The notes beneath the pieces were generated by a model, which saw only the letters and a list, made by a program, of their open reading frames with translations, was not told the DNA's origin and ran no database searches. DNA of 64,000 nucleotides, taken from contig JALWGC010000014.1 in NCBI GenBank assembly GCA_027038835.1, positions 62,001 through 126,000 on the forward strand, given 5' to 3'. This document shows positions 18,960-24,557 of this stretch, piece after piece (position 1 is the stretch's first letter; every line of letters begins with the position of its first letter). A program made the translations under genes and the position numbers. The DNA comes from Helicobacteraceae bacterium (GTDB lineage: Bacteria; Campylobacterota; Campylobacteria; Campylobacterales; Sulfurimonadaceae).

Positions 18960-19043
18960 ATACGAACTTTCCGTTTTTTTGCCGTAACTATATCGAAAAA
19001 TGATTAAACAACGCGTTTAAGTGTTTTCATACCTTTAGTGCAG

Positions 19044-19049
19044 TATAAT
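19044..19049 (+). promoter_or_regulatory. -10 box of the tRNA-Ala gene
   Basis: TATAAT lies with its end 19 bases before the first base of tRNA-Ala, placing the transcription start some 10-12 bases upstream of the mature 5' end. No -35 box is evident. Confidence 0.6.
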
Positions 19050-19068
19050 TACGTTCGAATTTCAACAC

Positions 19069-19144
19069 GGGCCCTTAGCTCAGCTGGGAGAGCGCTTCGC
19101 TGGCAGCGAAGAGGTCACCGGTTCGATCCCGGTAGGGTCCACCA
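19069..19144 (+). tRNA. tRNA-Ala (anticodon GGC)
   Basis: A complete 76-base cloverleaf with encoded CCA. The acceptor stem pairs GGGCCCT with AGGGTCC (one G-U). The D-arm is AGCTCAGCTGGGAGAGC, the anticodon stem is CTTCG/CGAAG around CTGGCAG, giving anticodon GGC, and the T-arm contains GGTTCGATCCC. It reads GCC and GCU alanine codons. It is a single gene, not part of an rRNA operon. Confidence 0.95.
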
Positions 19145-19145
19145 T

Positions 19146-20725
<1,580 letters not shown>

Positions 20726-20859: not shown

Positions 20860-21987
20860 TTGAGCGATACGTCTCTTATTTTACTTGCAGCGGGCAGCTC
20901 CAGCAGGTTTGGAAGCGGTGTGAAGAAACAGTGGCTGCGCATAGAAGAGAAACCTTTGTGGCAATTCGTAGCAGATAGGTTCGAAAAGTTCGCACTTTTT
21001 GATAAAATCGTAATCGCTGCCGCACCCGATGAAATCCTCTATATGCAGCGCCACGGAGACTACAATATCGTTTCAGGCGGAGCATCGCGCCAAGAATCCC
21101 TCAAAAACGCCCTTGGACAAATAGATAGCGACTATGTCGTCGTCAGCGACGTCGCAAGAGCGTGTGTCGATAAAACGACGATAGAAGCGCTCTTGCAAAA
21201 ACGCGGAACGTTCGACGTGGTCGTTCCCTATATCGGCGTGAGCGATACCGTCGTGTATCGTAACGAAACAATCGACCGCGAAGAGCTAAGACGTATCCAG
21301 ACCCCGCAACTTTCCAAAACCGCCGTACTCGGACAAGCGCTTCTAAGCGATGTCGAGTACACCGACGAAAGCAGCGCCATAGTCGCCATAGGCGGCACGC
21401 GCGGGTTTATCGAAGGTACGCCAGATGCCGAAAAACTCACTTTCAAAAACGACATCGCCAAACTTCCTTGCCTTGGGCAACCCTCCAAACTCCTCTTAAA
21501 CGGAACCGGTTTCGATGTACATGAATTCGATGTTACGAAAAGTTACCTCTTTTTATGTGGAGAAAAAATCGAATGCGGTTACGGTTTCAAAGCGCATAGC
21601 GACGGTGATGTCGCCATCCATGCACTCATCGACGCACTTTTAGGCGCAAGCGGCATGGGAGACATAGGCGAACTCTTCCCCGATACCGACGCGGCGTATG
21701 CGGGGATCGATTCGAAAGAACTGCTACAACGCGTAGTGAACAAACTACGCGCTTTTGGATTCGAAATTGTCAACATAGACATAACCATCATAGCGCAACA
21801 GCCGAAAATCCTCCCATATAAAGAGCGTTTTCGAAAAAACATCGCCTCTTTATGCTCCATAGCACCCATTCGTGCGAACATCAAAGCGACAACGACCGAA
21901 AAGCTCGGTTTTATCGGTCGCAAAGAAGGGGTTGGAGTTTTGGCAAGCGCTAACGTAAAATACTATCAATGGACAGAAGAAAAATGA
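20860..21987 (+). CDS. ispDF: Bifunctional IspD/IspF isoprenoid-precursor enzyme
   Basis: This 375-residue fusion carries two steps of the MEP pathway to isoprenoids: MEP cytidylyltransferase (residues 1 to about 205) and MEcPP synthase (about 210-375). IspD signatures are LLAAGSSSRFGSGVKKQWL and SGGASRQESL. IspF signatures are GTGFDVHEFD (metal ligands), KAHSDGDVAIHALIDALLGA and GDIGELFPDTD. The same fusion is known from Campylobacter and Helicobacter. The start is TTG with GGAG 5 bases upstream (20851-20854). The next gene starts on its stop codon (ATGA), so expression is coupled to the regulator. Confidence 0.96.
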   Translation: MSDTSLILLAAGSSSRFGSGVKKQWLRIEEKPLWQFVADRFEKFALFDKIVIAAAPDEILYMQRHGDYNIVSGGASRQESLKNALGQIDSDYVVVSDVARACVDKTTIEALLQKRGTFDVVVPYIGVSDTVVYRNETIDREELRRIQTPQLSKTAVLGQALLSDVEYTDESSAIVAIGGTRGFIEGTPDAEKLTFKNDIAKLPCLGQPSKLLLNGTGFDVHEFDVTKSYLFLCGEKIECGYGFKAHSDGDVAIHALIDALLGASGMGDIGELFPDTDAAYAGIDSKELLQRVVNKLRAFGFEIVNIDITIIAQQPKILPYKERFRKNIASLCSIAPIRANIKATTTEKLGFIGRKEGVGVLASANVKYYQWTEEK

Positions 21988-22871
21988 AAATACTGATTAT
22001 AGAAAACGAAGTCTATCTCGCTCAAAGCATCGCTACGAAACTCAGCGACTTGGGTCATATGTGCGAAACCTGTACATCGGCAAGAGATGCCTTAAAGCAG
22101 GACAAATTCGACGTCGTCTTGCTCTCTACGAGCCTCAACAGCAACGACCTGACTCCGGTTGTGGAGAACTTCAAAGACGCAATCGTCATCTTGATGGTCT
22201 CCTACATCAGCAACGACACCGTTTCCAAGCCGCTTAGTGCAGGAGCGAAGGACTACATCGTCAAACCGTTTATGATAGAAGAGCTCGTGCGCAAAATCGA
22301 CCATCACCAAGACTACGAAAGACTCAAGAAATTTTCCACGATGGTGCAACGCTATTTCGAACACACCTTCACTCAAAACGTCGATTACCGCTTCGAAGAG
22401 TTTTCGCTTCCTCTTTTCATCTACTCTTCGGCACAAAAAAGCGCCGATGCATTCGCGTACCATTTCGCAAAAACGAAAAACACCCTTTTTTACTTTATCG
22501 ACCTGACACAAAGCGATGCTTTCGAAGAGATCCAAAACGCCCATGAATCGACTCTGCTTTATGCCATCAACTACCAAACACTCAAAAAAGGGGAGAAAAA
22601 AGAGTTTCTCTCCCTTATAGCCGACAAACGTATAATAGTCGCCACAAGCGAAAAGCCGGAGGAGGAGCTTCCTTACGAAACGATAGAGCTCAACAACGAA
22701 AACTCCTTCTTCACTCAAGGGGACATCCTCCCGATAGAGGACTACGTCAAATACATCGTTGTCAACTACCAACACAAATACCCCGACACCGAGCTCTCCA
22801 AAAAGCTTGGCATAAGCCGTAAAAGCCTTTGGGAAAAGAGAAAAAAATATGACATCGTCAAGAAAAAATAA
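21984..22871 (+). CDS. Atypical (aspartate-less) response regulator, HP1021 type
   Basis: The 295-residue protein has an N-terminal receiver fold (residues 1-120) in which the phosphoacceptor aspartate is replaced: DVVLLS puts Ser48 at that place, and the acidic pair is IEN. Lys94 of IVKPF is kept. The C-terminus ends in a helix-turn-helix (SKKLGISRKSLWEKRKKYD) preceded by a 130-residue middle region. This layout, and the position just after ispDF, match H. pylori HP1021 and its Campylobacter and Arcobacter homologs, which control chromosome initiation and redox responses without phosphorylation. The equivalence rests on synteny and features I can see, not a search. sat-like coding begins inside its 3' end. 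Confidence 0.82.
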   Translation: MKILIIENEVYLAQSIATKLSDLGHMCETCTSARDALKQDKFDVVLLSTSLNSNDLTPVVENFKDAIVILMVSYISNDTVSKPLSAGAKDYIVKPFMIEELVRKIDHHQDYERLKKFSTMVQRYFEHTFTQNVDYRFEEFSLPLFIYSSAQKSADAFAYHFAKTKNTLFYFIDLTQSDAFEEIQNAHESTLLYAINYQTLKKGEKKEFLSLIADKRIIVATSEKPEEELPYETIELNNENSFFTQGDILPIEDYVKYIVVNYQHKYPDTELSKKLGISRKSLWEKRKKYDIVKKK

Positions 22872-24039
22872 AACCCTCTACATCGACCAAGAAGCGCAAA
22901 GCGCGCTCGAACTCGTAGCACAAGGTCTGCTGTATCCGGTTACGAAGCTGATGAACAAAAAAGAATCGGACGAAGTTTCCAAAACCGGAATGATAGATGG
23001 CAAAACCTTCCCCTTCCCTTTCATTCTCGCACCTGCTGGGAAAAAGAACGAAAAGGTTCTGCGCTCCCTTGAAACGGGTGAAAAAGTTACACTCGTTTGT
23101 GATGGCAAAGAGTTCGCCGTTTTGGAAGTCGAAGAGGTGTTCGAAATAGACCCCAAAGAGCGTCTTATGCAAATATACGGCACGACCGACGTTACCCACC
23201 CCGGTATCCAGACAACGCTCAAACGTCTTGGTAAATACGCCGTAGCGGGTAACTATACGCTTGTTCGTTCTGCTTTGAGTGATGGCAAAAAAACAATACA
23301 AGAAGCAAAAGAGCTCATAGGCGCTAGCCATGTCTCCGCTCTTGTCATGGCGGCAAATCCGCTCCATAGAGCCCATGAACGTCTCATCCGTCAAACACTC
23401 GATTCTACCGATTTGGTCGTTATATTCTTGCTACGCCCCTACAACGAAAAAAACCTCGAATACGCTTTGCGCTACGAAACTTTGAAATATTTTCTCGATA
23501 ACTTTCTCCCAAAAAACAAAGCGATTATCGTACCGCTTGAGAACAGTTACATCTTCGCCGGATACAACGAAATAATCCTCGATGCTATCGTGGCGAAAAA
23601 CTACGGTTGCGACCGTTTGGTCATCGGGCGCAATCATGCGGGGCTTGGGATGTTTTACGATTGCAACTCCAACAAGTCTATCATAGACCGTCTCGTTGGC
23701 ATAGATATCGACATCGAAATCGCCAGCGAATACGTGTACTGCGACAAGTGCCGCACGCTTGTAAGCACCAACACCTGCCCCCATGGGCAGCACCACCACA
23801 TCTCCTACAAAGCCGATTCGATTCGCGAACTTTTGGAGCTTGGTATCTTGCCTCCTGCTGTTTTGATGAGAAAAGAGCTCTCAAGCTACATCCTCTCCAA
23901 ACTCTACCCAAATCGCTTTAAAAACCTCGAAAAACTCTACTACGACGTTCTACCTGTCGGCGGTTTGTTGCAAGAGCACACGGAGCAAGATTTTTATATG
24001 GAGCTGATGAAGCTCTACCAGACAACATCACTAACCTAA
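22849..24039 (+). CDS. ATP-sulfurylase-family protein with altered substrate motif
   Basis: The 396-residue protein aligns along its length with sulfate adenylyltransferase: an N-terminal PUA-like domain, then the nucleotidyltransferase HxxH motif NPLHRAHE (170-177), NYGCDRLVIGRNHAG (251-265), the zinc motif CDKC...CPH (Cys298, 301, 310), and LGILPPAVLMRKEL. In genuine enzymes the HxxH motif is preceded by Q-T-R, whose Gln and Arg hold sulfate. Here those positions are Met167 and Ala169. Nucleotide binding looks possible, sulfate binding doubtful. Database annotation would probably say sat. I recall the same gene order in C. jejuni (Cj1607-Cj1610). The substrate is unknown. It overlaps the upstream regulator by 23 bases. 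Confidence 0.75.
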   Translation: MTSSRKNKTLYIDQEAQSALELVAQGLLYPVTKLMNKKESDEVSKTGMIDGKTFPFPFILAPAGKKNEKVLRSLETGEKVTLVCDGKEFAVLEVEEVFEIDPKERLMQIYGTTDVTHPGIQTTLKRLGKYAVAGNYTLVRSALSDGKKTIQEAKELIGASHVSALVMAANPLHRAHERLIRQTLDSTDLVVIFLLRPYNEKNLEYALRYETLKYFLDNFLPKNKAIIVPLENSYIFAGYNEIILDAIVAKNYGCDRLVIGRNHAGLGMFYDCNSNKSIIDRLVGIDIDIEIASEYVYCDKCRTLVSTNTCPHGQHHHISYKADSIRELLELGILPPAVLMRKELSSYILSKLYPNRFKNLEKLYYDVLPVGGLLQEHTEQDFYMELMKLYQTTSLT

Positions 24040-24047
24040 GGAACGGT

Positions 24048-24557
24048 ATGAATTTTAGATGGTTTTTTCTCACTTTAGGATACAGCGGCACGGTCGATAA
24101 AGCACCCGGTACAGTCGGCAGTTTCGTCGCGATGCTCCTTGCTATTCCCATTATTCAATATATGGACAACTACACCCTTTTTCTCGCCGCTATCGTCATT
24201 ACCCTCATGGGGATAGAATCTGTCAACAAATATGAAGAAAGCGGGGGAGAACACGACAACAAACACATCGTCATCGACGAACTTGCAGGTATGTGGATAG
24301 CGCTAAGCATAGCACCGAGTTTCGCTGTAGAGAACATCTTCGACATCCAAAACGGCTTCTTGGTACAAACACTCCTCTCTTTTGCGCTCTTTCGCTATTT
24401 CGACATCACCAAACCCTCCATCATCGGTCGGCTCGATCGTGAAGCTAAAGGGGGTGTCGGAGTGATGCTCGATGACGTAGTCGCCGGCTTCGCGGCGGGT
24501 ATCAGTTCTGCCGTTTTGTGGCAGGGATGGTTGCAGGTTGCGCACTATCTATCTTGA
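24048..24557 (+). CDS. pgpA: Phosphatidylglycerophosphatase A
   Basis: PgpA dephosphorylates phosphatidylglycerol phosphate, the last step to phosphatidylglycerol. The 169-residue inner-membrane protein has the family signatures GYSGTVDKAPGTVGSFVAM near the N-terminus and VIDELAGMWIAL at about residue 76, followed by the DITKPSIIGRLDR motif and a glycine/aspartate-rich final helix (GVMLDDVVAGFAAG). Four hydrophobic segments are visible. It follows the Sat-like gene after 8 bases and overlaps the 3' end of the convergent mscS gene by 56 bases, an unusually long tail-to-tail overlap. Confidence 0.93.
   Translation: MNFRWFFLTLGYSGTVDKAPGTVGSFVAMLLAIPIIQYMDNYTLFLAAIVITLMGIESVNKYEESGGEHDNKHIVIDELAGMWIALSIAPSFAVENIFDIQNGFLVQTLLSFALFRYFDITKPSIIGRLDREAKGGVGVMLDDVVAGFAAGISSAVLWQGWLQVAHYLS

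What the first reader, a model, noticed from the sequence alone, without database searches (positions are those of the whole stretch)
22849..24039. ATP-sulfurylase-like protein that has lost the sulfate-binding Gln and Arg
The whole Sat fold is there (HxxH motif, GRNHAG, zinc CxxC...CPH motif), but the QTRN segment that contacts sulfate reads MAAN (Met167-Ala168-Ala169-Asn170). The gene is locked between an HP1021-type regulator and pgpA. I recall the same order in C. jejuni, so a conserved altered copy, not decay, is likely. It may be a nucleotidyltransferase with another substrate, hidden under the sat label in this phylum.
Basis: partly seen in the sequence, partly recalled or inferred. Interest (0 to 1): 0.6.

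Follow-up and report, generated by a model that had tools for sequence, protein, structure and literature searches.

The report
Phylum-wide retired ATP-sulfurylase beside CemR
A gene labelled 'sulfate adenylyltransferase' in most Campylobacterota, and reported essential in Campylobacter jejuni, has lost the sulfate-binding residues in every copy examined and, in whole families, other catalytic residues too, so it is most likely a protein with a new, unknown job, kept for its zinc site and tail and translated together with a regulator of energy metabolism.

Summary
In detail: the 396-aa ORF at 22849-24039 has the Sat fold (1v47, TM 0.84) but MAAN where Sat has QTRN. It is not a local oddity. 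The same gene occurs in about 305 of 397 Campylobacterota genomes, and none of 306 aligned members has Gln or Arg at the sulfate positions. True Sats (QTRN, GRDHAG) occur in only 6 of the 397; five of those carry both proteins.

Constant instead are the zinc motif (CxxC-x8-CPHGxHH, ligands 306/306), H176-E177, R341 and a C-terminal tail absent from Sats. Selection is strong (pS 0.75, pN 0.10).

Of 305 loci, 295 have cemR directly upstream, with an identical 23-base overlap in 257. Genomes without satL mostly keep ispDF-cemR-pgpA.

Best reading: a phylum-wide pseudo-ATP-sulfurylase ('SatL'), not an enzyme of sulfate activation, probably translationally coupled to CemR. The mechanism is inferred, not shown.

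The parts
22849..24039 (+). satL: Sat-fold protein, 396 aa, without the sulfate-binding Gln and Arg
   Evidence: ORF; PF01747 182 bits; below the NCBIfam Sat cut-offs, 209 vs 387 and 160 vs 323 bits; AlphaFold pLDDT 82.8; best PDB match 1v47, TM 0.84 by target
22861..23265 (+). PUA-like N-terminal domain (residues 5-139); missing in some Campylobacteraceae members
   Evidence: PF14306 79 bits; ~300-aa forms without it in genus code g55
23347..23382 (+). Altered RNP loop and HxxH, M167-A-A-N-P-L-H-R-A-H-E-R178, in place of QTRN-P-x-H-x-x-H
   Evidence: alignment with true Sats
23626..23643 (+). GRNHAG loop (residues 260-265; GRDHAG in Sat)
   Evidence: Arg kept in only 46/306
23740..23799 (+). 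Zinc motif C298-x2-C301-x8-C310-P-H312-G-x-H315-H-H317: the most constant part of the family
   Evidence: C298, C301, C310, H312 306/306; H315 303/306
23914..24036 (+). C-terminal extension (residues ~356-396) ending DFYxxLMxLYQTTSLT, not present in Sats
   Evidence: F382/Y383 in 99-100% of SatL, gap in all 6 true Sats; alignment
21969..22871 (+). cemR (HP1021/Cj1608-type orphan response regulator); its end overlaps the satL start by 23 bases
   Evidence: PF00072; overlap of 23 bases in 257 of 295 loci
24048..24557 (+). pgpA, 8 bases downstream of satL
   Evidence: PF04608 131.6 bits; spacing
20860..21987 (+). ispDF, first gene of the conserved cluster
   Evidence: NF006899 461 bits; synteny

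Best explanation
SatL is a retired ATP sulfurylase: a pseudoenzyme descended from Sat and kept across Campylobacterota for a binding role, not for making APS. Shown: it has the Sat fold; the sulfate site is gone in every copy; the pyrophosphate- and ATP-handling residues have been lost repeatedly in separate lineages; the zinc motif, H176-E177, R341 and a new C-terminal tail stay fixed; and its start lies at a fixed place inside the end of cemR. Inferred: it is made in step with CemR by translational coupling; the zinc knuckle and tail form the working surface, which binds a partner protein or nucleic acid; what remains of the nucleotide pocket may hold an adenine ligand as a signal. CemR, whose signal input is unknown, is the first candidate partner, but Campylobacterota that lack satL keep cemR, so SatL must have at least partly its own role.
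For: Sulfate Gln and Arg absent in 306/306; first His of HxxH lost in 78, GRD Arg in 260, pyrophosphate Arg in 291, column-249 Arg in all. HxxH state changes at least 8 times on a 165-member tree in which SatL is one clade apart from true Sats. Zinc ligands 306/306; mean conservation of the zinc motif 0.88 against 0.57 for catalytic columns and 0.52 overall. 18 positions fixed in SatL and absent from true Sats, including the tail. Strong purifying selection. 23-base overlap with cemR in 257/295 loci. Own genome has no real APS kinase and only weak PAPS-reductase-type hits. Cj1609, annotated sulfate adenyltransferase, reported essential in C. jejuni and C. coli (PMC10077673).
Against: H176 of HxxH (302/306), G260 (289/306) and H263 (265/306) are still well conserved, and 228/306 keep the first His, so nucleotide binding, and activity in some branches, is not excluded. 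The window protein itself keeps N170, HxxH, R261 and R326. The role is inferred; no partner is known. Genomes without satL keep cemR, and a C. jejuni cemR deletion is viable (PMC11334517), so dependence on CemR is not shown. The C. jejuni essentiality call could partly reflect polar effects on pgpA, which was also reported essential (PMC3229698).
Confidence: 0.6

Rival explanations
1. SatL is an active nucleotidyltransferase that adenylylates an acceptor other than sulfate; the small hydrophobic M-A-A pocket fits a larger or uncharged acceptor.
For: HxxH intact in about 75% of members; H176, G260 and H263 conserved; the window protein keeps N170, H173, H176, R261 and R326; reported essential in C. 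jejuni, as a biosynthetic enzyme might be.
Against: First His lost in nearly all of one family (45/49 of f4) and in three or more other clades; pyrophosphate Arg lost in 95%, a further Arg in all; GxxKxxD loop gone; catalytic columns drift while zinc motif and tail stay fixed.
Confidence: 0.24
2. The zinc/histidine cluster is a new catalytic or redox-sensing metal site that replaced the old active site; the Sat domain is only a scaffold.
For: CPHGxHHH is the most conserved part; P311, G313, H315 and Y320 are fixed in SatL and not in true Sats; CemR-type regulators respond to oxidation (PMC11334517).
Against: The same Cys3His knuckle is structural in Sats (PMC3779200); the model is of low confidence at 316-318; no metal or activity data.
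Confidence: 0.1
3. It is a genuine ATP sulfurylase with a rearranged sulfate site, serving sulfate assimilation.
For: Fold and family match; a Sulfurimonas review assigned the Sat-type protein to sulfate assimilation (PMC4584964).
Against: Both sulfate ligands absent in all 306 members; genomes that look able to assimilate sulfate carry CysD- and CysC-type genes instead, and the window genome has neither; fails curated Sat cut-offs by a wide margin.
Confidence: 0.03
4. The product has no function and the gene persists only because it is wedged between cemR and pgpA.
For: Tight spacing to both neighbours.
Against: pN/pS about 0.14 on uncorrected proportions; the gene was cleanly lost in other lineages with cemR and pgpA kept and survives after moving elsewhere in f7; reported essential in C. 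jejuni.
Confidence: 0.03

Closest known systems
ATP sulfurylase / sulfate adenylyltransferase, Sat type (PF01747, TIGR00339, NF003166), e.g. Thermus thermophilus 1v47 and Allochromatium vinosum 4dnx
   Same: PUA-like plus nucleotidyltransferase fold along the whole length; Cys3His zinc knuckle; H176, E177, R181, D188, G253, P335, R341 shared
   Different: No Gln/Arg sulfate ligands; pyrophosphate and GRD Arg mostly lost; HxxH broken in several lineages; extra CPHGxHHH residues; about 40-residue C-terminal tail; cemR-pgpA gene context
True Sats found in Campylobacterota (L032-L037)
   Same: Same family and phylum; five of the six genomes also hold SatL
   Different: QTRN and GRDHAG intact, no tail, lie in variable islands beside a pyruvate-kinase-like gene and, in two, next to an APS kinase-like gene
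CysDN sulfate adenylyltransferase
   Same: The sulfate-activating system in those Campylobacterota that have one (CysD-type PF01507 hits; PMC4584964)
   Different: Unrelated fold and mechanism; occurs independently of satL
Pseudoenzymes in general (dead enzymes kept as binding or regulatory proteins)
   Same: Catalytic residues lost repeatedly while fold and other surfaces are conserved
   Different: No paper in the library joins 'ATP sulfurylase' with 'pseudoenzyme'

Membership tests
ATP sulfurylase (Sat) | Fold and domain order of Sat | tested here: met
   PF01747 and PUA_2; Foldseek 1v47 E 2.4e-28, TM 0.84 by target
ATP sulfurylase (Sat) | QxRN loop with sulfate-binding Gln and Arg | tested here: not met
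   MAAN in the window; 0/306 members have Gln or Arg there, 6/6 true Sats do
ATP sulfurylase (Sat) | HxxH motif | tested here: inconclusive
   Present in the window; first His lost in 78/306 of the family
ATP sulfurylase (Sat) | GRD loop and pyrophosphate Arg365 | tested here: not met
   Arg of GRD 46/306, Asp nearly always replaced by Asn, Arg365-equivalent 15/306; the window keeps both Arg but has Asn for Asp
ATP sulfurylase (Sat) | Score above curated family cut-offs | tested here: not met
   209 vs 387 and 160 vs 323 bits; seven other members 131-208 vs 387, three true Sats 385-422
ATP sulfurylase (Sat) | APS formation from ATP and sulfate | not testable with these tools
   needs an enzyme assay
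ATP sulfurylase (Sat) | Association with sulfate activation or APS reductase genes | tested here: not met
   lies in ispDF-cemR-satL-pgpA; no APS kinase or strong PAPS-reductase-type hit in its genome
Pseudoenzyme | Loss of catalytic residues with continued purifying selection | tested here: met
   for the family as a whole; only in part for the window protein itself
Pseudoenzyme | No catalytic activity | not testable with these tools
   needs an assay
CemR partner | Co-expression and physical contact | tested here: inconclusive
   fixed 23-base overlap with cemR, but cemR persists without satL; contact not testable here

The most novel reading that the evidence does not exclude
SatL is the missing signal-input partner of CemR, the orphan regulator of energy metabolism in Campylobacteria: a dead ATP sulfurylase whose leftover adenine pocket or zinc knuckle senses adenylate or redox state and passes it to CemR through its conserved tail.
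Probability: 0.17. Interest if true: 0.85.

Novelty: new variant of a known kind. Interest (0 to 1): 0.6.

Why it matters
The 'sat' label in Campylobacterota has been read as sulfate activation: one genome study called it conspicuous that sat was present without the rest of the pathway (PMC4674564), and a Sulfurimonas review assigned it to assimilation because no dissimilatory partner exists (PMC4584964). This analysis offers an explanation: it is not a Sat. It also means that a protein reported essential in C. jejuni and C. coli has no known function, and it gives a testable partner (CemR), a testable surface (zinc motif and tail), and sequence features with which annotation can separate SatL from Sat.

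Tried and rejected
Decay or sequencing error: rejected by open frames and low pN in hundreds of genomes. Active Sat: rejected by universal loss of both sulfate ligands. A second Sat in the window genome: none. Strict dependence of cemR or pgpA on satL: rejected, both persist without satL. Hints from neighbours where satL has moved (f7: a QueH-like gene in opposite orientation, a lipoprotein-like gene): only three genomes, not pursued. Viral structure library: only weak nucleotidyltransferase-fold matches. Papers: no study of Cj1609 itself, only two papers mention it; none on a pseudo ATP sulfurylase; no report of ATP sulfurylase activity in this group found. The collection scan used a CPHGxHHH pattern, so those 80 loci are biased for that motif; the other loci came from protein searches and show the same.

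Full report
What was checked. The ORF at 22849-24039 (+) encodes 396 residues with a PUA-like domain and a complete ATP-sulfurylase domain (PF14306 79 bits, PF01747 182 bits). Its predicted structure (pLDDT 82.8) matches solved ATP sulfurylases first, best Thermus 1v47 with TM 0.84 by target length. In A. vinosum Sat the Gln and Arg of this loop bind the sulfate of APS, Asn202, His205, His208 and Arg365 bind pyrophosphate, and the GRD loop holds the ribose (PMC3779200). NCBIfam's curated Sat models give 209 and 160 bits against cut-offs of 387 and 323.

It is a family, not an oddity. One copy is present in the window genome and no other PF01747 gene. Among 397 genomes of the phylum, 306 have a protein match; one of these (G121) has a true Sat only. 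A family search shows six genomes with a clearly higher-scoring copy (249-281 bits). These six carry FQTRN and GRDHAG, and five of the six also hold the altered form. SatL forms one clade apart from the true Sats on a tree of 165 SatL and 6 Sat sequences (the root branch is long and the search was the quick one).

Which residues are lost. In an alignment of 306 SatL sequences, the Gln and Arg at columns 167 and 169 occur in none. Column 167 is Met or Leu in 276, column 169 Ala in 273. The loss spreads to the rest of the active site: the first His of HxxH is Asn or Thr in 78; the GRD Arg is kept in 46; Asp of GRD is nearly always Asn; the pyrophosphate Arg (window R326) is kept in 15; Asn170 in 180; an Arg at column 249 present in all six true Sats is absent in all SatL. 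The HxxH state changes at least 8 times on the tree; the losses include nearly all of family f4 (45 of 49; probably Sulfurovaceae), Helicobacteraceae genus code g8, and Campylobacteraceae codes g9, g54 and part of g16. The window's own branch is the most Sat-like: the window is one of nine sequences that keep N170, H173, H176 and R326.

Which residues are kept. C298, C301, C310 and H312 are present in 306/306; P311, G313 and H315 in 303 or more; H176 in 302, E177 and R341 in all. Mean conservation is 0.88 for the zinc motif, 0.57 for the catalytic columns and 0.52 over all columns. Eighteen positions are fixed in SatL and absent from true Sats, among them P311, G313, H315, Y320, P336, R356 and the tail residues F382, Y383, L386 and L389. 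The last residues (LYQTTSLT) are conserved although the model leaves them with low confidence, which would suit a docking motif; that is inference. In part of genus code g55 the PUA-like domain is gone while the zinc motif and tail remain. Against the three nearest relatives pS is 0.75-0.85 and pN 0.10-0.14; synonymous sites are saturated, so only the uncorrected proportions are given.

Gene context. The cluster ispDF-cemR-satL-pgpA is found throughout. Of 305 loci, 295 have cemR directly upstream, and the satL start overlaps the cemR end by exactly 23 bases in 257. The ten without it include contig ends, three f7 genomes (probably Sulfurospirillaceae) and one f9 genome where satL has moved. 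Genomes without satL, among them Helicobacteraceae and f7 genomes, mostly keep ispDF, then cemR, then pgpA; G007 and G140 lack both satL and a recognisable cemR. CemR (Cj1608, HP1021) is an atypical response regulator of energy metabolism whose signal perception is still enigmatic (PMC11334517). The fixed overlap points to translational coupling; it does not prove contact.

Sulfate metabolism. The window genome has only weak PF01507 matches (66 and 34 bits, against about 183-201 for CysD-type hits in other genomes) and no real APS kinase. Where the phylum seems to activate sulfate, CysD- and CysC-type genes are present side by side, for example in G036, which also has SatL. So SatL neither accompanies nor replaces a sulfate pathway.

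Literature. Cj1609, annotated sulfate adenyltransferase, is reported essential in C. jejuni and C. coli but not in the other two species tested (PMC10077673). pgpA (cj1610) and ispDF (cj1607) were listed as essential in an older transposon study (PMC3229698), so polar effects are a caution. Two papers note the puzzle of a lone sat gene in this group (PMC4674564; PMC4584964).

Conclusion. Shown: fold, universal loss of the sulfate site, repeated loss of catalytic residues, fixed zinc motif and tail, selection, fixed overlap with cemR. Inferred: no enzymatic role common to the family, a binding function through the zinc knuckle and tail, and a possible link to CemR.

Noticed in passing
L283-L288 (Campylobacteraceae genus code g55): SatL without the PUA-like domain: open frames of about 300 aa whose homology starts near residue 138, with zinc motif and tail intact.
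   Followed up: partly
L089, L090, L091 (family code f7): satL has left the cemR operon and stands divergently beside a QueH-like gene and next to a small lipoprotein-like gene in all three genomes.
   Followed up: partly
L102-L107: True Sat genes of this phylum lie in variable islands with a pyruvate-kinase-like gene directly downstream and, in five of six, a KefB-like transporter gene; an APS kinase-like gene is adjacent in L102 and L104. Identities of these neighbours are by eye, not by profile search.
   Followed up: partly
L313 (G048:C1:1464058-1465201): satL appears split in two overlapping frames near its N-terminus in one Helicobacteraceae genome, possibly a frameshift.
   Followed up: no
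window:19069-19144 (+): tRNA-Ala (ggc); the ORF listed at 19038-19316 overlaps it and is probably spurious in its first part.
   Followed up: no
G007 and G140: Two near-complete genomes of the phylum without a recognisable CemR, both also without SatL.
   Followed up: partly
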